DNA of 13,017 nt, taken from Novosphingobium sp. (GTDB lineage: Bacteria > Pseudomonadota > Alphaproteobacteria > Sphingomonadales > Sphingomonadaceae). Position numbers and translations under genes: made by a program. The first letter of the stretch is position 1, and the number at the start of each line of letters is the position of its first letter. Location of the stretch: the NCBI GenBank assembly GCA_030830245.1, contig JAURNJ010000202.1, positions 1 to 13,017 on the forward strand, written 5' to 3'. Under the pieces are notes generated by a model. The model had not been told where the DNA came from, made no database searches, and worked only from the letters and a program-made list of their open reading frames with translations. Below, one piece after another: positions 1 through 12,417 of this stretch.

Positions 1-933
1 GGCATCGAACCAGCCGCAGCGGCGTTTGCGCCCCGTCACCGTGCCGAACTCGTGTCCGCGCTCACCAAGCCGCTGGCCCACCTCGTCTTCCAGTTCGGTG
101 GGGAAGGGACCGGAGCCGACGCGCGTCGTATAGGCCTTGACGATGCCCAGCACGTATCCGGTCGCCGACGGGCCCAGGCCCGATCCGGAAGCAGCCGTGC
201 CACTCACGGTATTGGACGATGTTACAAAGGGATAGGTGCCGTGATCGACATCGAGGAGCACGCCTTGCGCGCCTTCGAACAGAATGCGCGCGCCTGCCTT
301 CTTGATCGTGTTGAGCCGCCGCCAGACCGGCTGGGCATAGGCAAGCACGAAGGGTGCGATCGCACGCAGCTCTGCGATCAGCGCCGCGCGATCGACCGGC
401 GGCTGGTCAAACCCGGCGCGCAACGCATCGTGATGCGCACAGAGCCGGTCGAGCTGCGGGCCGAGCGCATCGAGGTGGGCAAGGTCGCACACCCTGATCG
501 AGCGGCGACCGACCTTGTCCTCGTAGGCAGGCCCGATTCCGCGCCCGGTCGTACCGATCTTGCCCGCGCCCGCCGCTGCCTCGCGCAGGCCGTCAAGCTC
601 GCGGTGGATGGGCAGGATGAGCGGGCAATTATCTGCAATCGCGAAATTTTCCGCCGATATTGCAACACCCTGTGCCTCAAGCTTGGCGATTTCCTCTTTA
701 AGGTGCCAAGGGTCGAGTACGACGCCGTTACCGATATAGGAGGGCGTGCCGCGCACGATCCCGGACGGCAGCAGACTGAGCTTGTAGGTCTGTTCGCCCA
801 CCACCAGCGTGTGCCCGGCATTGTGACCGCCCTGAAAGCGCACCACAGCATCGGCGCGGCTGGCCAGCCAGTCGACGATCTTGCCCTTGCCTTCATCGCC
901 CCACTGGGCGCCGATGACAGTAACGTTGGCCAT
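1..933 (-). CDS. purA: Adenylosuccinate synthetase, N-terminal 311 residues (cut by window edge)
   Basis: This enzyme joins IMP and aspartate using GTP to form adenylosuccinate, the first committed step from IMP to AMP, in the cytoplasm. The start ATG (931-933) opens [18 protein letters not shown], which contains the N-terminal GDEGKGK phosphate loop with catalytic Asp13. His41 lies in GGHNAGHT. The IMP-binding GTTGRGIGP follows at residues 127-135, and a [10 protein letters not shown] segment, matching the Arg-rich IMP/GTP loop, sits at the window edge. The family is about 430 residues long, so roughly 118 C-terminal residues, including the guanine-recognition loop, lie outside the window. 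A purine-rich GAGGGA lies about 10 bases before the start. The gene is on the same strand as serC-serA-hisZ but is separated from hisZ by an oppositely oriented PAS/PilZ gene, so it probably has its own promoter in 934-1206. Identification is near certain. Confidence 0.97.
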
Positions 934-1206
934 GGATAGAGTCCCTCACCCTGCCGGGATGATCCGCAAGCGCCCTTCGACAGGACTCGGCGCAAGGGAT
1001 AGGACGAAAACGGCCAGGGGCCGCGATGCGGGCCGGCCTTTAGCGGTGGCTCGGACATGGGTCAAGCGCGCACCCTGCCGGGCTCCGGGTCCGCAGTTCG
1101 TTAACCAATATTTCCAACCGCATTAGGGGGATTTCAACGAAGTCCACGCAGGGATTGGCAGGAAATATGAACGCGTCAACGCGGTCTGGGAGTTTCGCGA
1201 GAATAG
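934..1206. promoter_or_regulatory. Divergent intergenic region purA / PAS-PilZ gene
   Basis: This 273-bp gap must hold the promoters for purA (minus) and the PAS/PilZ gene (plus). No convincing -35/-10 pair can be picked by eye. Visible structure includes a 12-bp direct repeat CACCCTGCCGGG at 947-958 and 1071-1082, and a GGCCGGCC palindrome at 1031-1038. An AT-richer patch (about 1098-1115) contains GTTAACCAATATTT and is the likeliest plus-strand promoter zone. The 81-residue open frame crossing this region has no protein-like character and was not called. Confidence 0.4.
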
Positions 1207-2412
1207 ATGGCTGGCAGAGGTTTCTTTAGGAGCCTGACCGACAGGGGACAATCTGCCTCGCCAAAAGCGGGTGCGGAGCTGCCCGGAAACGTCATCCGTC
1301 CTGACGACGCCAAGGCGCGGCTGGGCATCCTCGAAGACTTCGAAAGGGCCGGATTCGGCTGGCTTTGGGCAAGCGATGCCGATGGCTGCCTAATCTACAT
1401 TTCCGAAAGCGCCGCGCAGAGCACGGGCAAGCAACCTGCCGACATTCTGGGCAAGCACCTTACCGAACTGTTCGAAACCGACCCGGACAACCCGGACGAA
1501 CGATCCGACCGGCCGTTCAAGTTCCAGCTGAGCGCGCGCAGCCGCATCGTCGATCTTGTCGTGCGATTCGCGCTGGGCAAGTCGAAGCACGAGGCCAAGC
1601 AGACCTGGTGGTCGTTTTCCGCGCAACCGAACCTGGACGGGGCCGGCAGCTTCAAGGGCTATCGCGGCATCGCCAAGGACATCACCGTCGAATACGAGCG
1701 CAAGCTGATGGATTCGCGGCTGGCGGAATATGATTCGCTGACCGGCCTTGCCAACCGGCACCGCATGTCGAAAGACCTCAACAGCGCCAAGATCATCGCC
1801 GCGATCATGGGGCTCGCAAATGCGCTTGGCATGGATGTCGTGGTGGAAGGGGTGGAAGCCTTCGACCAGCTGGAAGTGGTCAAGGGAATGGGCGCGAAGT
1901 ACGTGCAGGGTTGGATCTTCTCGAAGGCGCTGGCCATCGAGGTGGTCAGGGACCGCATGTCGACCGGCGAGTTCCGCATCGAGCCGGACGGTCCGGACCA
2001 TTACCGTTCCGACCGCCGCACCGTGTTTCGCCGCATCGGCATCATCCACGAGGATCATCGCTATGCCGGCGTACTGCGCGATCTTTCGCGCACTGGCGCA
2101 CGCGTCGAAGGCTTGCTCGGCGTGCCTGTTGGCACGCAGCTCGTGCTCGATCTGGGCGGCGGACAGCTCGCCGTCTGCGCCGTCAGCCGCGCCAAGGAAG
2201 CCATGATGGGGGTCGAATTCGAGACCCCGCTGGTCAACGACGGCGCTGGTGGGCTTTGCACCCGCCACCGCGTTTCGCCCTATGCGCTTGCAGCCGCCGG
2301 AATGCCGTTGGAAGCGTTGCCTGCAGGCAACTATCCGATGCAGCTGATCAAAAAGGACGGCGACAACCAGCGCAAGCCGTTGTTTGTCGAGGTCAAGACA
2401 CCGGGGATCTGA
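1207..2412 (+). CDS. PAS–PilZ protein with internally collapsed GGDEF-EAL core
   Basis: The 401-residue product looks like a cyclic-di-GMP signalling protein with its catalytic middle missing. Residues ~43-165 form a PAS/PAC sensor (GFGWLWASDADGCLIYIS ... GYRGIAKDIT). Residues 176-191 (DSLTGLANRHRMSKDL) are the canonical opening of a GGDEF cyclase. Residue 193 onward (SAKIIAAIMGLANALGMDVV, then VEGVEAFDQL and YVQGWIFSKAL) is the canonical end of an EAL phosphodiesterase. Neither a GGDEF nor an EAL signature motif is present. From the opening DSLTG to the closing QG is ~58 residues, where an intact GGDEF-EAL pair needs about 400. Residues ~266-340 form a PilZ domain with the RxxxR motif (RTVFR, 271-275) and DLSRTG (292-297), so c-di-GMP binding may survive. 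The frame is open throughout. The start has only a weak ribosome site (GGGAG at about 14 bases). No enzymatic activity is expected; it may be a receptor or a decaying gene. Confidence 0.85.
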   Translation: MAGRGFFRSLTDRGQSASPKAGAELPGNVIRPDDAKARLGILEDFERAGFGWLWASDADGCLIYISESAAQSTGKQPADILGKHLTELFETDPDNPDERSDRPFKFQLSARSRIVDLVVRFALGKSKHEAKQTWWSFSAQPNLDGAGSFKGYRGIAKDITVEYERKLMDSRLAEYDSLTGLANRHRMSKDLNSAKIIAAIMGLANALGMDVVVEGVEAFDQLEVVKGMGAKYVQGWIFSKALAIEVVRDRMSTGEFRIEPDGPDHYRSDRRTVFRRIGIIHEDHRYAGVLRDLSRTGARVEGLLGVPVGTQLVLDLGGGQLAVCAVSRAKEAMMGVEFETPLVNDGAGGLCTRHRVSPYALAAAGMPLEALPAGNYPMQLIKKDGDNQRKPLFVEVKTPGI

Positions 2413-2421
2413 GCAAGCTCA
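2410..2421. repeat. Palindrome holding both convergent stop codons
   Basis: TGAGC-AA-GCTCA is a perfect 5-bp inverted repeat. Its left TGA is the stop of the plus-strand PAS/PilZ gene and its right TCA is the stop (TGA) of minus-strand hisZ, leaving six bases between the two genes. There is no T-run, so it is at best a weak bidirectional terminator. Confidence 0.5.
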
Positions 2422-3528
2422 GCCCAAGGCCACCGCTTCGCTGCCTTCCAGCCGGTGTGTGCAACCCAGCTCCGCCGGATCGTCTCGGGCCGAAAGCGCG
2501 GCCCGCGTGCGCCAGCCGACCGCGCGCAGCCGTGCCGCCACGTCGCCATCATGGCCGAGCGGTAGAAACAGGACATTTTCCAGCGCGGCGCTGGCCGCGA
2601 GGCTGTCGATCAGCGGATCGGGGTAAAGCGAAAAGCCCGTCGCTGCCTCGTCTCGCCCGAGAATGCGATAGGTTCCGCCGCGCCCCAGCGCGCCCGAAAC
2701 ATTATCTGCATAGAGGGTGAAACCGAACCAGGACTGATACTCGAAGCCGTGCCGTTCGCTCGGGTCAAGGGTGATCCTGGCCTTGCCCTCCACCCGACCG
2801 GCGATCTCGCGCAGGCCCGCAATGCGGCTGGCAAGCGCGCCGCCGGTGTCGAATTGCGCCAGCTTGTCTATCGCCTGGTCGAACGGGCCGATGGCGGCGA
2901 GCAGCGGCAGGTAGGCTTCGCCTCCCGCAGAGACCAGCCCGCCCGCATCCTTGGCGTCAAGCTCCCGACGCACTGCCTCCAGATCCCCGGTACGAGGCAC
3001 CTTACCTTCCAGGGTATCGACCAGATCGGGCAAGGTAAAATCGAGCGATATTTTCGTCGCGCCCGCCGCCTGCAGCGCCTCAATCGCCAGCGCCACGATT
3101 TCTCCGGCAGCGGCGACCGAATCCGATCCGATCAGCTCCGCCCCGACTTGAAGCCGCTCGCGCGCCGGATCGAGCCCCTGGCCCTTGATGGTGACCACCT
3201 GCCCGGCATAGCACAGCCTGAGCGGGCGCCCCGCCCCGGCGAGGCTGGTCGCAGCGAGGCGGCCGATCTGCGGGGTGATGTCGCTCCGCAGCGCCATCAT
3301 CCTGAGCGACACGGGATCGACAAAGCGGAACATGCGGCGCGGACTGATGCCCGACATCCGGCTCGCCATCGACTTTTCGAATTCGATGCTGGGGGTCTGC
3401 ACCCGGTCGTAGCCATGGCTGTCGAGCACATCCATGACGGCGCGCGTCACCCGCACAGCCGTCGCCGCATCGGCAGGCAGCCGGTCCTCCAAGCCCTCGG
3501 GCAACAGATCGCGGTCGGTATCTTGCAT
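2419..3528 (-). CDS. hisZ: ATP phosphoribosyltransferase regulatory subunit
   Basis: HisZ is a catalytically inactive paralogue of histidyl-tRNA synthetase. It assembles with the short form of HisG to make active, histidine-regulated ATP phosphoribosyltransferase, the first step of histidine synthesis. The 369-residue product shows the class II synthetase-like core: LLPEGLEDRLP (8-18), RMFRFVDPVSLRMMALRSD (65-83) followed by ITPQIGRLA, then YAGQVVTIKG (107-116) and RLQVGAELIG (125-134). A Gly-rich segment (GALGRGGTYRILGRDE) follows nearer the C-terminus. It is shorter than a HisS (~420) and lacks the C-terminal anticodon-binding domain, which fits HisZ. AGGGAGG five bases before the ATG supports the start. 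It follows serA by 25 bp, so the two are probably co-transcribed. hisG is not in the window; a short hisG elsewhere in the genome is expected. Confidence 0.9.
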   Translation of the reverse strand: MQDTDRDLLPEGLEDRLPADAATAVRVTRAVMDVLDSHGYDRVQTPSIEFEKSMASRMSGISPRRMFRFVDPVSLRMMALRSDITPQIGRLAATSLAGAGRPLRLCYAGQVVTIKGQGLDPARERLQVGAELIGSDSVAAAGEIVALAIEALQAAGATKISLDFTLPDLVDTLEGKVPRTGDLEAVRRELDAKDAGGLVSAGGEAYLPLLAAIGPFDQAIDKLAQFDTGGALASRIAGLREIAGRVEGKARITLDPSERHGFEYQSWFGFTLYADNVSGALGRGGTYRILGRDEAATGFSLYPDPLIDSLAASAALENVLFLPLGHDGDVAARLRAVGWRTRAALSARDDPAELGCTHRLEGSEAVALG

Positions 3529-3553
3529 CAGGGCCTCCCTGCCCCAGTCACAA

Positions 3554-5137
3554 TCAGAACGCCAGCGCCATCACCCGCTTGACCCCCGCAAGGCCACGCG
3601 CCGCCTCGAGCAAGGAGCCGGGGACCGGGCTGTCGACCGATAGCAGCAGCACTGCCTCGCCTCCCGCCTCGCGCCGCCCGAGGTTGAAAGTGCCGATGTT
3701 GATCGCGTTCTCGCCGAGCAGCGTGCCGAGGCGACCGATGAAGCCGGGCACGTCCTCGTTGACGATATACAACATGTGGCCCTTGAGTTCGGCTTCCACC
3801 TTGATGCCGAACAGCTCGACCAGGCGCGGCTCGCCATTGCCGAACAGCGATCCGGCAACGGACCGCTCGCCGGCATCGGTCTTCACCGAAACCCGGATCA
3901 CGGTGTGGTAATCGCCCGCGCGTTCGGTCTTGACCTCGCGCACTTCCATGCCGCGCTCCCGGGCGAGGAAAGGCGCGTTGACCATGTTCACCGTGTCCGA
4001 ATGGACCCGCATGAACCCGGCCAGCACGGCAGCGACAATCGGCTTGATGTTGAGCTCTGCCGCCACGCCTTCCGCATGGATCGAGATGCGCGGGATGGTG
4101 CCGGTGGTCAGCTGGCCGACCAGCGATCCGAGACTCTCCGCCAGCGCCATGTAAGGCCGCAGCTTGGGCGCTTCCTCGGCACTGAGCGACGGCATGTTGA
4201 GCGCGTTGGTGACGCCGCCGTTGACGAGATAGTCGGAAAGCTGCTCGGCAACCTGCAAGGCGACATTGACCTGCGCCTCGTTGGTGCTCGCGCCAAGGTG
4301 CGGCGTGCAGATGAAATTGGGCGCGCCGAACAGGACGTTGTCCTTGGCCGGTTCCTCGGCGAAAACGTCGAGCGCTGCGCCAGCGACATGGCCGGAATCG
4401 AGCATTTCGCGCAATGCCGCCTCGTCGATCAGGCCGCCGCGCGCGCAATTGATGATGCGCACGCCCTTCTTCGTCTTGGCGAGGTTTTCCCGGCTCAAAA
4501 TATTGCGCGTCTGGTCCGTCATCGGGACATGCAGGGTGATGAAATCGGCCCGCGCCAGCAGGGTGTCGAGATCCGCCTTCTCCACTCCCATCTCCACCGC
4601 GCGTTCCTCGGTGAGGAAGGGATCGTAGGCTAGCACCTTCATCTTGAGGCCAAGAGCGCGACTGGCGACAATCGAGCCGATGTTGCCCGCGCCGATCAGG
4701 CCAAGCGTCTTGCCGGTCACCTCGACTCCCATGAAGCCGTTCTTGGGCCACTCACCCGCCTGGGTGCGCGCATTGGCTTCGGGGATTTGCCGGGCGAGCG
4801 CGAACATCATGGCGATGGCGTGTTCGGCAGTCGTGATGGAATTACCGAACGGCGTGTTCATCACCACGACGCCCTTCGAGCTGGCATAGGGAATATCGAC
4901 ATTGTCGACACCGATACCTGCGCGCCCGATAACCTTGAGCTTTGTGGCGGCGTCGAGCACTTCCTTCGTCACCTTGGTCGAACTGCGGATGGCAAGGCCA
5001 TCGTAGTCGCCGATACGGGCGATGAGCTGTTCGGGCGTCTCGCCGGTGATGACATCGACATCGCAGCCGCGCTCTTCGAAGATCTTCGCGGCGTTGGGGT
5101 CCATCTTGTCGGAAATGAGGACTCTGGGTTTGGTCAT
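3554..5137 (-). CDS. serA: D-3-phosphoglycerate dehydrogenase
   Basis: SerA oxidises 3-phosphoglycerate to 3-phosphohydroxypyruvate with NAD+, the entry to serine synthesis. The 527-residue length matches the long form of the family. The N-terminal substrate domain has RAGIGVDNVD (72-81). The Rossmann fold shows GLIGAGNIG (146-154) with the NAD-ribose aspartate in YDP (Asp172). Catalytic residues are Arg233 (CARGGLIDE), Glu262 (FAEEPA) and His280 (TPHLGAS). Residues ~320-440 fit the intervening ASB domain, and ~452-527 (HMLYIVNEDVPGFIGRLGTL) is an ACT domain, which in this family can mediate serine feedback. GGAG eight bases upstream supports the ATG. It lies 93 bp downstream of serC and 25 bp upstream of hisZ, so the pathway genes act together. 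An ACT domain alone does not prove serine inhibition here. Confidence 0.97.
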   Translation of the reverse strand: MTKPRVLISDKMDPNAAKIFEERGCDVDVITGETPEQLIARIGDYDGLAIRSSTKVTKEVLDAATKLKVIGRAGIGVDNVDIPYASSKGVVVMNTPFGNSITTAEHAIAMMFALARQIPEANARTQAGEWPKNGFMGVEVTGKTLGLIGAGNIGSIVASRALGLKMKVLAYDPFLTEERAVEMGVEKADLDTLLARADFITLHVPMTDQTRNILSRENLAKTKKGVRIINCARGGLIDEAALREMLDSGHVAGAALDVFAEEPAKDNVLFGAPNFICTPHLGASTNEAQVNVALQVAEQLSDYLVNGGVTNALNMPSLSAEEAPKLRPYMALAESLGSLVGQLTTGTIPRISIHAEGVAAELNIKPIVAAVLAGFMRVHSDTVNMVNAPFLARERGMEVREVKTERAGDYHTVIRVSVKTDAGERSVAGSLFGNGEPRLVELFGIKVEAELKGHMLYIVNEDVPGFIGRLGTLLGENAINIGTFNLGRREAGGEAVLLLSVDSPVPGSLLEAARGLAGVKRVMALAF

Positions 5138-5153
5138 TCTATGTGCTCCGTGC

Positions 5154-5224
5154 GTCCCTGCGCAGCAGGGACCTTGTCGGTAATGAGTATTACAATGGCA
5201 CGAGGCCCCTGCCTTCGCAGGGGC
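5154..5224. repeat. Three consecutive hairpins in the serC–serA gap
   Basis: Three perfect inverted repeats sit in 71 bp: GTCCCTGC-GCA-GCAGGGAC (5154-5172), GTAAT-GAGT-ATTAC (5180-5193) and GCCCCTGC-CTTC-GCAGGGGC (5205-5224). The outer two share a CCCTGC/GCAGGG core. They fill almost the whole gap after serC and before the serA ribosome site. They could form a REP-like dispersed palindrome unit, an attenuating or mRNA-stabilising structure, or a partial terminator. No U-run follows on the transcribed strand. Confidence 0.7.
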
Positions 5225-5230
5225 GCAAAC

Positions 5231-6355
5231 TCAGCTCTTGACCGTGGCGTAGGCCCAGTCGAGCCAAGGTCCGAGCGCCTCGATATCGGCAGTCTCGACC
5301 GTAGCGCCGCACCAGATGCGCAGGCCCGGCGGGGCATCGCGGTAGCCGGCGATGTCGTAGGCCGCTTCTACGTCTTCCAGCAGCTTGGCGAATGCCTTGA
5401 TGAACGCCTCGTCCGCGCCCTCGACGGTGAGACACACGCTGGTCTTCGACCGAGTCGCCGGATCGGCAGCGAGGTGGCCCAGCCAGTCGCGCTCCGCAAC
5501 GATCCGGTCCAGCGCGGCGGCATTCGCATTGCTGCGCGCCTGGAGACCCTTCAGCCCGCCCACGGACTTTGCCCATTCGAGCGCGAAGATTGCGTCCTCC
5601 ACAGCGAGCATCGAAGGCGTGTTGATGGTCTCACCCTTGAACACGCCTTCGGCCAGCTTGCCCTTGGAGACGAGGCGAAACACTTTGGGCAGCGGCCACT
5701 GCGGTGTGTAGCTTTCCAGCCGCTCGACTGCGCGCGGGCCAAGGATCAGGACGCCATGGCCGCCCTCGCCGCCAAGCACCTTCTGCCACGAGAACGTGGC
5801 GACATCGATCTTTTCCCAATCGATGTCATAGGCAAACACCGCGCTGGTCGCGTCTGCGAAGGAAAGGCCCTGCCGGTCCGCCGCGATCCAGTCCGCATTC
5901 GGCACGCGCACGCCCGAGGTCGTGCCGTTCCAGGTGAACAGCACATCGTTCGACCAGTCGACCTGCGACAGGTCGGGCAGCCCGCCGTAATCGGCCCGGA
6001 TCACGGTGGGATCGAGCTTCAACTGCTTGGAGATATCGGTCACCCAGCCTTCGCCGAAGCTTTCCCAGGCGAGCGCGGTGACGGGCCGCGCGCCGAGCAT
6101 GGTCCACATCGCCATCTCGAAGGCGCCAGTGTCGGAGCCCGGCACGATGCCGATGCGGTGCGTATCGGGCAGGCCGAGCATCTCGCGCATCAGGTCGATG
6201 CAATGGCCGAGCCGCGTCTTGCCGATCTTGGCGCGATGCGAGCGACCAAGCACCTCGGTAGCGAGTTTTGCGGGGGAATAGCCCGGCGGCTTGGCGCAGG
6301 GACCGGAAGAAAAGAACGGACGCGCGGGTTTGCGCGCCGGCATTTGTGCAGTCAT
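5231..6355 (-). CDS. serC: Phosphoserine aminotransferase
   Basis: SerC is a PLP enzyme that transfers an amino group from glutamate to 3-phosphohydroxypyruvate, giving phosphoserine (step two of serine synthesis). It usually also acts on the analogous intermediate of pyridoxal phosphate synthesis. The 374-residue protein starts with [12 protein letters not shown] (14-25). It carries the phosphate-binding [15 protein letters not shown] (70-84), Asp168 of [11 protein letters not shown], and the Schiff-base lysine Lys192 in [12 protein letters not shown]. The sequence style is that of the second SerC subgroup (Methanosarcina type), common in alphaproteobacteria, rather than the E. coli type. 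AAGGAG eight bases before the ATG (6353-6355) is a strong ribosome site. It is first in the serC-serA-hisZ block, with a promoter expected in the divergent region 6356-6516. No serB is seen here. Confidence 0.95.
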
Positions 6356-6419
6356 GTCAGACTCTCCTTGCAGAGAGCACGCGCGGCGTTGGGACCGCGT
6401 GGCCCGTCGGCGGCCTTAG

Positions 6420-6440
6420 TGTTGCACCGCAACAAGTCAA
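6420..6440 (-). promoter_or_regulatory. Candidate serC promoter -35 with overlapping inverted repeat
   Basis: Read on the minus strand, TTGACT (6440-6435) is a good -35 hexamer. Immediately downstream is TGTTGC-GGT-GCAACA (6434-6420), a perfect 6-bp inverted repeat lying in the spacer, where a repressor would block polymerase. The -10 is poor (CTAAGG at about 6419-6414). The TGC-N-GCA pattern resembles sites bound by regulators such as PhaR, but that link is only a resemblance. Confidence 0.35.
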
Positions 6441-6469
6441 GCAATTTACCGCAATTTACCATCGGGTAA
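6441..6469. promoter_or_regulatory. Tandem GCAATTTACC repeat plus inverted half-site
   Basis: GCAATTTACC occurs twice in perfect tandem (6441-6450 and 6451-6460), and the second copy forms TTACC-ATCG-GGTAA (6456-6469). This gives three half-sites in a 29-bp, AT-richer stretch in the middle of the divergent serC / lipoprotein promoter region. A 10-bp period puts the half-sites on the same helix face. A second inverted repeat, GCAGT-N8-ACTGC (6484-6501, with GTTAAC inside), lies just before the lipoprotein start. These fit operator sites; the protein is unknown. Confidence 0.4.
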
Positions 6470-6516: not shown

Positions 6517-7182
6517 ATGCGCCGGATCGCTCTCCTCCTGCCCGCCGTGGCCCTGCTTGCCGCCTGCGGCAGCGTCGTGCCCGAGGGGCCCAAGCAGCAG
6601 ACCGTGGCGCGTTCGACCGCTGTGTTCACCCCGCGGCCGGAGGCCCGCCAGTGCCTCGCCGAACTCGGCGCGAGCAAGGCGAACTTCACCCCGGTGCCTG
6701 ATCAATACTTCGAGCGGGGCTGTTCGACGCTCAACACCGTGCGGCTAACAAGCCTGCAAAGCGACGATGCCGTGCTCGCACTCGACCGTCTCGGGCCGGT
6801 GACCTGCCCGCTTGCCACCACTTTCGCGGCTTGGGCGCGTTTCGGCGTCGATCGCGCCGCGCGCCAGATACTCGGCAGTCCACTCGCGCGGATCGAGACG
6901 ATGGGCAGCTACTCCTGCCGCAATGTGGCCGGAACCGCCCGCCGCTCGGGCCATGCGAGCGCCAATGCCATCGACGTTTCCGCATTCATTCTTGCGGATG
7001 GTCGACGGATCCCGGTGCTGGGCGGCTGGAACGGCGGTAGCGCGAGCGAACGCCAGTTCCTGCGCACCGTGCACCAGAGCGCTTGCCGGCGTTTCGGCAT
7101 GGTGCTGGGCCCGGACTACAACAAGGCCCATCACGATCACCTGCACGTCGAAACGGGATTTCCGGGCGATTTCTGCCGGTAA
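6517..7182 (+). CDS. Extensin-family (peptidase M15-like) lipoprotein
   Basis: The product, 221 residues from ATG 6517, begins with a short lipoprotein signal (MRRIALLLPAVALLAACG) whose lipobox LAAC puts the lipid on Cys17. An outer-membrane or periplasmic location is therefore expected. The body matches the extensin-like C-terminal family: CPLATTFAAW (97-106), GSYSCRNVAG (130-139), SGHASANAIDVSAF (144-157), then FGMVLGPDYNKAHHDHLH (193-210). His146, Asp153 and His208/His210 form a zinc-site pattern like that of D,D-peptidases of the M15 type, so a role in peptidoglycan trimming is plausible but inferred. Six cysteines in the mature part suggest disulfides. The open frame extends upstream to 6268, but that would run inside serC and hide the signal peptide, so ATG 6517 is preferred. 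The ribosome site (GAAGAA) is weak. It is divergent from serC. Confidence 0.85.
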   Translation: MRRIALLLPAVALLAACGSVVPEGPKQQTVARSTAVFTPRPEARQCLAELGASKANFTPVPDQYFERGCSTLNTVRLTSLQSDDAVLALDRLGPVTCPLATTFAAWARFGVDRAARQILGSPLARIETMGSYSCRNVAGTARRSGHASANAIDVSAFILADGRRIPVLGGWNGGSASERQFLRTVHQSACRRFGMVLGPDYNKAHHDHLHVETGFPGDFCR

Positions 7183-7191
7183 GGCGGACTG

Positions 7192-7217
7192 GGGCAGCGC
7201 GCTAATCCGCACTGCCC
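7192..7217. terminator. Hairpin between convergent genes, possible bidirectional terminator
   Basis: GGGCAG-C-GCG-CTAATC-CGC-A-CTGCCC forms a 6-bp stem, one mismatch, a 3-bp stem and a 6-base loop. It lies in the 48-bp gap between the stop of the extensin-family gene (7182) and the stop of the amidohydrolase gene (7231). Position and symmetry fit a shared terminator, but no T-tract follows on either strand. Confidence 0.45.
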
Positions 7218-7230
7218 TCACCCTGTCAAA

Positions 7231-8502
7231 TCAGAACGGCAGATTGTAAAGCTTCACCGCGTTGTCCTGAAGCACCTTCTTCTGCACTTCGTAGCTGTAG
7301 CCGCCGAGCACATCCTTGAGGTGCGCCTGCACCCCTGGATAGAGCGAGGTCGGATGCGGGAAGTCGGTTTCGAACATGATCTTGTCCTCGCCGATGCGGT
7401 GCAGCAGGTCCTTCGGCCCGACGCTCTCGAACCAGAACGTGCACCAGAAGTGGTCGTTCCAGTATTCCCAAGGCGACTTCTTGAGCTTGTCGCGCTTGCC
7501 CGCCAGCATCTCGCGGAACTGGTGTTCGAGAGCTTCGACCGCCCACGGCACCCAGCCCGCGCCGCTTTCGATAAGGCCGATCTTCAGGCCGGGGTGCCGG
7601 TCGAGCCTGCCCGAAACCATCCAGTTGCCCATGGTTGCGGCATTGCCCATCGAGAACATCATGGCGACGACCGCGAGGCCTTCCTCGAACTCAAAATCCT
7701 TCCAGGTCATCGTGAAGGGATTGATCGAGGCGTTAAGGTGGAAATTGAGCGCCATGCCGGTGTCGCTGCACAGGTCGAGGAACTCGGTCCAGTAGTCGTT
7801 CATGAAGCTGGGAACGCCGACGAATTCAGGCGTATCGGGCAGGACGAAGCCCTTGAGGCCCATTTCGTGGCAACGACGCGCCTCGGCCATCATGGCCTTC
7901 TGGTCCCAATAGGGCAGGTGCGCCATGTTGAAGATGCGCTGGCCGCTGACTTCCTGGTATTCTGCGGAAGCATCATTGTAGATGCGCACGATGGTGTGGG
8001 CGAGCTCCTTGTCGTCCAGGGTCATCAGCATGCCCGCCTGGGTAACGCCTGAATTCTGGTAACAGATCTGCGCGTGGACACCCATGTCGTCCATCGCCTT
8101 TAGGCGCGGACCGATCTCATGCCCCCCGGGGTGCGACTGGTCCAGGTTGGGGAATGCAAAGCGGCCCAGCAGCTTGTTGTTATCCTTGCGGATCACGTTG
8201 CCGCCGGTTGCGCCAAGATCGCGGTCGCCTAGGTGCCAGCGGTCGCGTCCGTCGATCCGCTTGATCACCGGCATCTTGTCCTTCATCGCGGCAGGCGCGC
8301 GGCTGGTGAAGAGATCCGGCGCTTCGGTCAGGTGTGCATCGGTATCGACGATCTTGATCCCGGCGAACATCGGATCGAGCCCCTTGGACTCCTGCGAATA
8401 ATCGACTTCGCGGATGATTCCGCCTTCGCTGAAGCCGGTCTCGGCCCAGTATTTGACGGCGCTTTCCTGCATTTCCTTGGTCTTGGGATCGGCGTCGGCC
8501 AT
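7231..8502 (-). CDS. Amidohydrolase family 2 metal-dependent hydrolase/decarboxylase
   Basis: The 423-residue protein belongs to the amidohydrolase-2 group (ACMSD-like TIM barrels). Members hydrolyse or decarboxylate aromatic acids and related compounds using a bound metal. Visible signatures are IVDTDAHLTE (51-60; the Asp55-x-His57 metal pair), HLPYWD (195-200), FHLNAS with His255 (254-259), LIESGAGWVPWA (310-321) and MFETDFPHP with Asp380 (376-384). All expected metal or catalytic positions appear present. The N-terminus carries ~48 extra residues before the first barrel strand. GGAGA seven bases before the ATG (8500-8502) supports the start. It is divergent from the P450 gene with ~200 bp between them, which suggests joint control and a shared catabolic or tailoring pathway. 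The substrate cannot be read from sequence; hydrolase versus decarboxylase is undecided. Confidence 0.88.
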   Translation of the reverse strand: MADADPKTKEMQESAVKYWAETGFSEGGIIREVDYSQESKGLDPMFAGIKIVDTDAHLTEAPDLFTSRAPAAMKDKMPVIKRIDGRDRWHLGDRDLGATGGNVIRKDNNKLLGRFAFPNLDQSHPGGHEIGPRLKAMDDMGVHAQICYQNSGVTQAGMLMTLDDKELAHTIVRIYNDASAEYQEVSGQRIFNMAHLPYWDQKAMMAEARRCHEMGLKGFVLPDTPEFVGVPSFMNDYWTEFLDLCSDTGMALNFHLNASINPFTMTWKDFEFEEGLAVVAMMFSMGNAATMGNWMVSGRLDRHPGLKIGLIESGAGWVPWAVEALEHQFREMLAGKRDKLKKSPWEYWNDHFWCTFWFESVGPKDLLHRIGEDKIMFETDFPHPTSLYPGVQAHLKDVLGGYSYEVQKKVLQDNAVKLYNLPF

Positions 8503-10053: not shown

Positions 10054-10673
10054 GTGAACGGCGCGCGCTGCCGCTCGATCCCGATTCGGTAAAGGGCTTC
10101 CTCGATCCCGAGGAGGGTTGGGCGCTGTACGACGCTGCGCATGCCGCGGCGCCGCTTGGCCCGGTGGTCGAGATCGGCGCGTATTGCGGCAAGTCCGCGC
10201 TCTATCTTGGCGCGGCCTGCAAGGCTTCGGGCAATACGCTGTTCTCGATCGATCATCATTGCGGCTCGGAGGAAAACCAGCCGGGCTGGGAATGGCACGA
10301 TGCCGAGCTGTGGAACGAATCGGCAGGACGGCTCGATACGCTGCCCACCTTCCGCGAGACGATCCGCAAGGCCGGGCTGGACGACACCGTCGTCGCGCTG
10401 GTCGGGCGCTCGACCCAGATTTCGGCGGTGTGGGACCGACCCTGCGGCATGGTCTTCATAGATGGCGGGCACACGATGGAAGCCGCCCTCGAAGACCTGC
10501 GTGGCTGGTCGGGCAAGGTAGCGCGCGGTGGCACGCTGGCGATCCACGATGTATTCCCGAACCCCGACGATGGAGGCCGTCCGCCCTACGAGATCTACCG
10601 CATGGCGCTTGCATCCGGCCTGTTCGAAGAAAGCGCCGCAGTGAAAAGCCTGCGACTGCTCAGGCGGGCCTAG
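10050..10673 (+). CDS. Class I SAM methyltransferase (Methyltransf_24-like)
   Basis: The 207-residue product has a compact SAM-binding Rossmann core: motif I VVEIGAYCGKS (39-49), the ribose-binding acidic position SIDHH (Asp68), and FIDGGHT (136-142, Asp138), followed by GGTLAIHDVFPNPDDGG (160-176). The stretch CGSEENQPGWEWHD (71-84) and RLDTLPTFRET (94-104) are highly patterned and look family-specific. The proposed start is TTG 10050 inside the P450 stop (TTGA overlap), with AAGGTGA about eight bases upstream. An alternative is GTG 10023, adding nine poor residues. Its stop TAG shares CTAG with the convergent toroid gene. It may act in the same pathway as the minus-strand glycosyltransferase-methyltransferase-toroid set, but it is transcribed with the P450. 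The substrate is unknown; an O-methyltransferase is the default guess. Confidence 0.85.
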   Translation: MSERRALPLDPDSVKGFLDPEEGWALYDAAHAAAPLGPVVEIGAYCGKSALYLGAACKASGNTLFSIDHHCGSEENQPGWEWHDAELWNESAGRLDTLPTFRETIRKAGLDDTVVALVGRSTQISAVWDRPCGMVFIDGGHTMEAALEDLRGWSGKVARGGTLAIHDVFPNPDDGGRPPYEIYRMALASGLFEESAAVKSLRLLRRA

Positions 10674-11710
10674 TCAGCGAAAATCCTGCTTCCCGGCGTC
10701 ATCCCTTCGAGCGCATCCAGAGCCAGCACATAGGCCGCCTGGGTCCAGCCCGGCTTTTCCGCAGGCCAGTCGATGGCTTCATCGAACTGCCAGCCCATCC
10801 AGAACACGCCGTCGCCATCGCGGCGGGTTTCGACGAGATGGAGCAGCCGCGCCGCTTCGCTATGGTTTCCGCAGCGCAGCAGGGCCATGACAAGCTCGCA
10901 TGTTTCGGCGACTGTCACCCACGGTTCGCTTTCCACGCAGCGGCAACCAAGATCCGCTTCGATGAAACGGTGCCATTGCCCGCGCAGATGGGCATGTGCA
11001 GCCTTCCCGGTCACGGCCCCTGCCAGCACGGGATAATACCAGTCCATGGCGTGATGGCCGCGCTGCTGTTCCAAACGGGCAAAGCGTTCGGGCCGAGTGC
11101 GGATCGTCTCACCCAGCCGCTCGCGCGCCTCGCGCCAGCTAGGCTGGTCTTCGCGCATGACCGCCGCCAGATCGAGCGCATGTCCGAGACTGGCGAAGAT
11201 ACTCGCGTTTCCGGCCAGCAATGCATCGTCGAGGCCAGTGCCGTGCGCCTCGGCACACCACGATACGTCGCCATGATCATGCTGATGGTCGAGGACATGG
11301 TCTATCGCAGCACGCACCATGGGCCAGTATGGCTTGGCGGCGCGCGTGCCGAACAGGAGCCGATGGTGCTCCACGGCGGTTGCGACATAGGCGGTAAAAT
11401 TGGTGTCGAGCACCTGCGGAGCGGGTACCCGCGCAATGGCAACGTGATCGGCCATCGGCAGGGCATTGCCATATTCGCTTAGAAAAGCGCCGTCGCCCTG
11501 TTGCGCATTGGCTAAAGCATCGAGTCCAGCGCGGGCCGCGCGCTCCTCTCCCGCAACGCCTAGCGCCATGACACATTCGGCATGGTTCCAGCTGTCCCAC
11601 GGGCCTTGCTCGAACCAAGGGATCATGCCGTCGCCCTGCTGCACCTCGAGGATGCGGGCGACCGGCGCAGCGAGGCGCGACCGAAGCGCGGTGGCAACTT
11701 GCAGCATCAT
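10670..11710 (-). CDS. Alpha/alpha-toroid 'prenyltransferase-like' protein
   Basis: The 346-residue protein has the look of the terpenoid cyclase/prenyltransferase alpha-alpha toroid fold. Short Gly-Asp-Gly turns recur at repeat ends: QQGDGMIPWF (24-33), QQGDGAF (70-76) and DGDGVFW (298-304). Conserved-looking blocks are WDSWNHAECVMAL (38-50), LDTNFTAYVATAVEHH (101-116), MDWYYPVLAGAVTG (222-235) and CRCVESEPWVTVAETCELV (256-274). There is no DxDD motif of class II terpene cyclases and no clear protein-prenyltransferase zinc site, so the database-style name 'prenyltransferase' should not be read as function. The frame is open to 11827, but ATG 11710 overlaps the TGA of the upstream methyltransferase (ATGA), so this start is preferred and implies coupling. 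A sugar- or lipid-handling enzyme is possible. No signal peptide is seen. Confidence 0.75.
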   Translation of the reverse strand: MMLQVATALRSRLAAPVARILEVQQGDGMIPWFEQGPWDSWNHAECVMALGVAGEERAARAGLDALANAQQGDGAFLSEYGNALPMADHVAIARVPAPQVLDTNFTAYVATAVEHHRLLFGTRAAKPYWPMVRAAIDHVLDHQHDHGDVSWCAEAHGTGLDDALLAGNASIFASLGHALDLAAVMREDQPSWREARERLGETIRTRPERFARLEQQRGHHAMDWYYPVLAGAVTGKAAHAHLRGQWHRFIEADLGCRCVESEPWVTVAETCELVMALLRCGNHSEAARLLHLVETRRDGDGVFWMGWQFDEAIDWPAEKPGWTQAAYVLALDALEGMTPGSRIFAD

Positions 11711-12417
11711 GGGTCTCGCCTGAAATACATTGCCAGGCTCTTGCCCATTATCGGATCGAGAACGCGTTCCAAACCCCGAGTCAGCCACGGGGCCTGCATC
11801 ATGTCCCAGACAAGCAGGCGATGCCAAGCCTTGACCAGCGGATGATCGTCACGCCGGCTCCAGAACGCGGTCTTGAGCCACCAGAACGGCGTATGCAGCG
11901 CATGGGCATGGTGCGAGGAGAGGAATGTGAAGCCGGCCTGCTCCACCATTGTGCGCAGTTCGCCCGGATCGACGATGCGGATGTGCCCGCCGGGCTGGTC
12001 CGAATAGCCTCCCGGCCCCGAGGCGAGTTTCCAGCAGATCCACTCGGGCCAGGCGCGCGGCACAGTCACGGCATAGATCGCGCCAGGCTTGAGTACGCGC
12101 GCGGCCTCGGAAACCAGCGCCGCCATGTCCGGCACATGTTCGAGCACCTCCGAACAGATTGCCGCATCGAAGCTGCGATCATCGAACGGCAGCGCGGACG
12201 CATCGGCAGTGCGGAACTCGGCGACCGGGCCCTTGCCGCCAAGATCGGCGGCGCGCTCGCGCGCCAGCGCCAGCGATGCCTCGTCAAGATCGACACCAAT
12301 GGCCTGTGCCTGGGTCAGCAATTGCACGCCGTGGCAGTGCCGCCCCTCGCCGCAGCCGATGTCAAGCAGCCGGTCTCCCTTGCCGAGGCCCAGCGCCTCG
12401 ATCCTTGCGGTCAGCAT
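11707..12417 (-). CDS. Class I SAM methyltransferase (Methyltransf_11-like)
   Basis: The 236-residue product carries motif I LLDIGCGEG (17-25), an acidic ribose-binding loop GVDLDE (41-46), ADASALPFDD (71-80) and SEVLEHVPDM (89-98), a standard SAM-dependent methyltransferase core. The C-terminal third is unusual, rich in His and Trp: GGHIRIVDPGEL (143-154), SSHHAHALHTPFWWLK (167-182), HPLVKAWHRLLVWDMM (192-207), and a hydrophobic end around PWLTRGLERVLDPIMGKSLA (210-229). This part probably recognises the substrate and perhaps the membrane surface. ATG 12417 overlaps the glycosyltransferase stop by 7 bp, and its own stop overlaps the toroid start by 4 bp, so three genes are translationally coupled. 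The substrate is likely a product of the glycosyltransferase (inference). Confidence 0.88.
   Translation of the reverse strand: MLTARIEALGLGKGDRLLDIGCGEGRHCHGVQLLTQAQAIGVDLDEASLALARERAADLGGKGPVAEFRTADASALPFDDRSFDAAICSEVLEHVPDMAALVSEAARVLKPGAIYAVTVPRAWPEWICWKLASGPGGYSDQPGGHIRIVDPGELRTMVEQAGFTFLSSHHAHALHTPFWWLKTAFWSRRDDHPLVKAWHRLLVWDMMQAPWLTRGLERVLDPIMGKSLAMYFRRDP

What the first reader, a model, noticed from the sequence alone, without database searches (positions are those of the whole stretch)
1732..1941. In-frame collapse of a GGDEF-EAL core inside a PAS–PilZ protein
The canonical opening of a GGDEF domain (DSLTGLANRHRMSKDL, residues 176-191) runs straight into the canonical end of an EAL domain (SAKIIAAIMGLANALGMD ... 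VEGVE ... QGWIFSKAL). The change falls at about nt 1777-1785. About 350 residues that would hold both catalytic sites are gone, yet the frame is open and PAS and PilZ both look intact. Either a natural in-frame deletion turned a c-di-GMP enzyme into a PAS-linked c-di-GMP receptor, or the gene is decaying, or the assembly collapsed here.
Basis: partly seen in the sequence, partly recalled or inferred. Interest (0 to 1): 0.75.

Follow-up and report, generated by a model that had tools for sequence, protein, structure and literature searches.

The report
Internally deleted cyclic-di-GMP enzyme gene
A normally 742-residue bacterial signalling enzyme is seen here with its catalytic middle missing in one fragmented draft genome, while what looks like the same species carries the whole gene elsewhere, so this is most likely a recent, ordinary loss-of-function deletion or an assembly error, not a new receptor.

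Summary
ORF 1207-2412 (401 aa) reads PAS, the first 16 residues of a GGDEF domain, the last quarter of an EAL domain, then PilZ. The join is at nt 1770-1773. Against 5 of 6 relatives compared, exactly 1,023 nt (341 codons) are missing, with no inserted base and about 2-4 nt shared at the break. The motifs GGDEF, FEAL and DDFGTG fall in the lost part; EGVE and the PilZ c-di-GMP motifs remain.

The decisive find is P0125, an intact 742-aa protein (2 member sequences, sources ncbi and jgi) that differs from the window protein at 2 of 401 shared residues. So the short form is very recent or artificial. It was not found elsewhere: its junction is in 1 of 195 genus genomes, the window's own, and none of 120 listed proteins covers the query fully. 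The genome is a 72%-complete draft in 351 contigs. A codon model shows no significant relaxation of selection (p 0.35).

Verdict: probably a real, recent null allele; an assembly or library artefact is a strong rival; a selected PAS-PilZ receptor is possible but unsupported.

The parts
1207..2412 (+). 401-aa ORF: PAS + GGDEF remnant + EAL remnant + PilZ + conserved tail
1372..1686 (+). PAS domain (residues 56-160)
   Evidence: Pfam PAS_9, E 9.9e-9
1723..1770 (+). GGDEF remnant, residues 173-188: first 16 of the 157 residues matched in the intact protein
   Evidence: Pfam GGDEF 173-329 in P0125; alignment
1770..1773 (+). deletion junction; 1,023 nt absent relative to intact orthologues; about 2-4 nt shared by both sides
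1771..1926 (+). EAL remnant, residues 189-240: last 52 of the 232 residues matched in the intact protein
   Evidence: Pfam EAL
2014..2226 (+). PilZ domain (residues 270-340)
   Evidence: Pfam PilZ 19.9 bits, below cut-off 22.5; G016 orthologue 22.5 bits, P0125 not listed at E 1e-3
2017..2031 (+). RxxxR motif RTVFR (271-275), part of the PilZ c-di-GMP site
   Evidence: R270, R271, F274, R275, R276 invariant in 20 proteins; motif meaning recalled
2080..2097 (+). [D/N]xSxxG motif DLSRTG (292-297)
   Evidence: D292 and S294 invariant, G297 nearly so in 20 proteins; motif meaning recalled

Best explanation
A real, very recent in-frame deletion of 1,023 bp removed the catalytic core of a PAS-GGDEF-EAL-PilZ cyclic-di-GMP enzyme in one Novosphingobium strain or population, by illegitimate recombination at a few shared bases. 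The product can neither make nor degrade c-di-GMP; most likely it is a null allele that happens to stay in frame. Shown: the gap, its exact size, the loss of the motifs, the nearly identical intact form. Inferred: that the junction exists in living cells, that P0125 is from the same species, and that the product has no function.
For: Exact 1,023-nt gap with no added bases. Intact P0125 differs at 2 of 401 shared residues, positions 4 and 146. No long repeat spans the breakpoints: in the two orthologues tested the longest exact match within 60 nt of the two breakpoints is 7 nt and not in register, so a k-mer repeat collapse would not make it. In a sample of 40 other contigs of this genome (of 351), 37,624 bases on 11 contigs aligned to the part of G016 that was fetched, with 6 length differences of 60 nt or more, none of them open through on both sides as this one is; the draft does not show such joins often, though the sample is small. 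The missing segment is not elsewhere in the draft (best match 51% identical). A relative's copy (G012) is broken by frame changes and a stop, so the gene may be dispensable.
Against: The genome is a 72%-complete, 351-contig draft; no reads are available. The junction occurs in this one assembly only of 195. Staying in frame has a one-in-three chance either way. G012 is a draft too, so its breaks may be errors. Selection: a count of private changes (34:25 nonsynonymous to synonymous, against 52:112 in three relatives, p 6e-4; PAS alone 7:2 against 12:41, p 0.002) hinted at relaxed constraint, and pairwise omega is a little higher with the window (0.12-0.16) than among the three nearest relatives (0.09-0.12), but the likelihood model did not confirm it (omega 0.077 against 0.058, p 0.35; without the remnants p 0.13).
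Confidence: 0.55

Rival explanations
1. Assembly or library artefact: a chimeric read, amplification chimera or false gap closure joined two points 1,023 nt apart; the organism carries the intact 742-aa gene.
For: Fragmented incomplete draft; intact gene, 399 of 401 shared residues identical, in other assemblies; junction in 1 of 195 genus genomes; a few shared bases fit a chimera as well as a deletion.
Against: No repeat long enough for a de Bruijn collapse; no other join of this kind in 37,624 aligned bases outside the window; gene order around the ORF is preserved as in G145.
Confidence: 0.36
2. A selected variant: loss of the enzyme core made a PAS-linked c-di-GMP receptor that signals through PilZ.
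For: Frame kept; PAS intact; PilZ motifs RTVFR and DLSRTG kept; omega on the window's branch 0.077, rough 95% range 0.05-0.13.
Against: The branch is almost wholly older than the deletion (2 residue changes since P0125), so omega says little about the short form. No second short form found. About 50 EAL residues, a quarter of a barrel, sit between the domains; the model of that stretch and of PilZ is low confidence (pLDDT mostly under 50), so it neither supports nor excludes folding.
Confidence: 0.08

Closest known systems
PAS-GGDEF-EAL-PilZ proteins of Novosphingobium and other sphingomonads (P0125; G016 orthologue, 742 aa)
   Same: PAS, GGDEF start, EAL end, PilZ and tail align to three relatives without any other gap and to P0125; in G016 the gene also lies next to the same left-hand neighbour. 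The surroundings of P0125 were not seen
   Different: 341 residues with both catalytic sites are missing here
Natural truncations of c-di-GMP turnover genes within species (ycgG, yciR), reviewed in PMC10333796 (passages seen)
   Same: Strain-level loss of part of a c-di-GMP turnover gene
   Different: As told there, ycgG loses its sensory domain and yciR what follows GGDEF, each leaving an active enzyme; here both catalytic sites go and the sensor and receptor ends stay
Degenerate GGDEF-EAL receptors such as FimX and LapD (recalled)
   Same: No catalysis expected, c-di-GMP binding conceivable
   Different: Those keep folded GGDEF and EAL domains; here neither domain is whole

Membership tests
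GGDEF diguanylate cyclase (PF00990) | GGDEF motif and complete domain | tested here: not met
   No PF00990 match; motif absent; 16 residues remain
EAL phosphodiesterase (PF00563) | EAL and DDFGTG motifs, complete barrel | tested here: not met
   Matches profile 181-235 of 236 only; FEAL and DDFGTG absent, EGVE present
PAS domain protein | Complete PAS fold | tested here: met
   PAS_9 35.9 bits, profile 7-102 of 103; modelled at pLDDT 57-84 per ten-residue block between 51 and 160
PilZ c-di-GMP receptor | PilZ domain by profile | tested here: inconclusive
   19.9 bits against cut-off 22.5; intact G016 orthologue 22.5
PilZ c-di-GMP receptor | RxxxR and [D/N]xSxxG motifs | tested here: met
   RTVFR 271-275, DLSRTG 292-297
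PilZ c-di-GMP receptor | Binds c-di-GMP | not testable with these tools
   Needs a binding assay
Functional, selected short form | Same short form in more than one independent genome | tested here: not met
   Junction pattern in 1 of 195 genus genomes; none of the 240 proteins listed by two searches holds it

The most novel reading that the evidence does not exclude
A single in-frame deletion has just converted a c-di-GMP enzyme into a PAS-PilZ receptor in one strain, caught at the moment of origin beside its intact parent allele.
Probability: 0.08. Interest if true: 0.5.

Novelty: new member of a known kind. Interest (0 to 1): 0.2.

Why it matters
If the deletion is real it is one more strain-level loss in a c-di-GMP network, a kind already in print (PMC10333796, passages). 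If the product proved functional, the pair of near-identical intact and short alleles would show directly how a receptor can arise from an enzyme in one step. If it is an artefact, it is a reminder that single draft genomes can offer convincing 'new' domain architectures.

Tried and rejected
Missing core elsewhere in the draft: searched, best match is a 51%-identical EAL protein on contig C79, not the lost piece; by the completeness estimate about 28% of the genome is not in the draft. A family of short forms: not found. One listed protein, P0003, has a shorter spacing (259 instead of 340-344 residues) because part of GGDEF is missing, with EAL whole; a different event.

Relaxed selection as proof that the deletion is old: private-change counts suggested it but the four-taxon codon model did not, and P0125 makes it moot. 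Controls of that model: serA own branch 0.011 against 0.039 (p 0.0085, lower), serC 0.077 against 0.078, P450 0.043 against 0.061 (p 0.35); so the window's lineage is not raised in general. The separate fit of the 63-codon EAL remnant gave a runaway branch length and is not used. Amidohydrolase and hisZ had no columns shared by all three relatives; purA gave no more than the 80 shared columns demanded and was not fitted. In one search the focal gene was profiled on one topology and the controls on another single one, on which P450 peaks at 0.077.

Structure model: mean pLDDT 48, only PAS is readable, so no fold search was run. Plasmid records: 51 with a match, all under 60% identity, no bearing. 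Literature: 'GGDEF-EAL-PilZ' with 'PAS' gave 0 papers; 'PilZ, EAL, Novosphingobium, c-di-GMP' gave 1, on cellulose (listing only); the assembly-error search gave 7 (listing only); the architecture search gave 7, of which one was opened (passages).

Full report
WHAT IS THERE. The ORF at 1207-2412 is open for 401 codons. Pfam places PAS at residues 56-160, the end of EAL (profile 181-235 of 236) at 186-240 and a sub-threshold PilZ at 270-340. The genome is a draft of 2.14 Mb in 351 contigs, 72% complete, 3.4% contaminated. Of 17 named loci that encode relatives, several are MAGs named Novosphingobium and the others mostly sphingomonads or unclassified Alphaproteobacteria (which genera count as sphingomonads is recalled). 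Neighbours are a purA-like gene on the minus strand to the left (translation, name recalled) and HisZ-like, SerA-like and SerC-like genes on the minus strand to the right (Pfam; gene names recalled).

THE GAP. The first half of the ORF matches a relative's gene at up to 91% of bases up to window base 1772, the second half from 1770 on. Side by side, the two stretches lie 1,023 nt apart in G016, G149, G151, G189 and G145, and 1,004 nt apart in G012. At the break the left stretch of G016 matches to ...TCGAA and the right one from AAAGACC..., so 2 bases are shared there, and 3 to 4 would be if the lost sequence resembled some other relatives. In the two orthologues tested, the longest exact match within 60 nt of the two breakpoints is 7 nt and not in register. 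Of 27 relative loci examined (20 distinct, 7 fetched twice), 26 (19 distinct) hold both halves, about 1.0 kb apart in each; one holds only the second half because its contig starts inside the core. Of the 240 proteins listed by two searches, 187 hold both halves, at 340-344 residues' spacing except one at 259.

WHAT IS LOST. In the intact P0125, Pfam GGDEF covers 173-329 and EAL 350-581. The gap takes 341 residues: GGDEF (252), FEAL (379), NVSA (435), LELELTES (464), DDFGTG (497) and KVDKSF (518) are gone; EGVE and the PilZ motifs stay. From established knowledge of these domains the product can have neither cyclase nor phosphodiesterase activity.

THE INTACT ALLELE. The first protein search could only return proteins up to about 702 residues, so it could not show full-length close relatives; its best matches covered at most 67% of the query (120 of 394 listed, 7995 candidates scored). 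A second search with the G016 orthologue returned P0125, 742 aa, 2 member sequences on 2 contigs, sources ncbi and jgi (120 of 7998 listed). It is identical to the window protein over all 213 residues after the break and at 186 of 188 before it (differences at 4 and 146). The next nearest full-length protein is 85-88% identical. That this is one species is an inference from protein identity; its DNA was not seen, and whether its two member sequences are independent is not known.

HOW OLD, HOW REAL. Two substitutions since P0125 mean the short form is young, or that it does not exist outside the assembly. The junction pattern, with one mismatch allowed, occurs in 1 of 195 genomes of the genus, the window's own. 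To see how often the draft shows such joins, 40 other contigs (227,654 bases of 2.14 Mb) and the window were compared with 410,084 bases of G016: 48,800 bases aligned, 11,176 of them in the window and 37,624 on 11 of the 40 contigs (matches under 70% identity or 120 nt were dropped, and pairs across the ends of fetched stretches are not seen). Eight length differences of 60 nt or more were found, 2 in the window and 6 outside; only the focal one is open through on both sides, and it was included by design. So the draft is not full of such joins, but the sample is small. The codon model gives omega 0.077 on the window's branch against 0.058 elsewhere (LR 0.87, p 0.35), roughly 0.05-0.13; the private-change count that had suggested relaxation (p 6e-4) is not upheld.

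IS IT FUNCTIONAL. PAS is modelled at pLDDT 57-84 per ten residues; what follows residue 175 is mostly under 50, PilZ included, from an alignment of 20 sequences, so the model cannot say whether the remnant folds. A quarter of an EAL barrel is not expected to. A relative, G012, carries the gene broken by frame changes and a stop, which fits a dispensable gene, if those breaks are not draft errors.

VERDICT. Most likely a recent in-frame null allele (0.55), next an artefact (0.36), least a selected receptor (0.08). Within-species truncation in c-di-GMP turnover genes is already described (PMC10333796, passages).

Noticed in passing
L053 4519-6675 (G012:C86): The orthologue of a close relative is broken: three matching stretches in two frames, one TGA, and 19 nt fewer between the halves; decay or draft errors.
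   Followed up: partly
P0003 (650 aa): A more distant homologue lacks the second half of GGDEF (Pfam 1-68 of 161) but keeps EAL whole: another in-frame loss in this family.
   Followed up: partly
L062 / G000:C79:5976-6908: Another EAL protein of the same genome, 51% identical to the last part of the lost core, whose match ends 6 bases before the contig end.
   Followed up: no
window 1-6442: The gene order from the purA-like gene through the focal gene to SerA and SerC is shared with G145, but in G016 the focal gene and serA lie over 30 kb apart on one contig.
   Followed up: partly
window 7151-7231: Between the extensin-like and amidohydrolase genes G016 has about 876 nt more and G149 about 350 nt more than the window.
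   Followed up: no
window 10673-11827: A 385-aa minus-strand ORF beside two methyltransferases and near a glycosyltransferase has no Pfam match at 1e-5.
   Followed up: no
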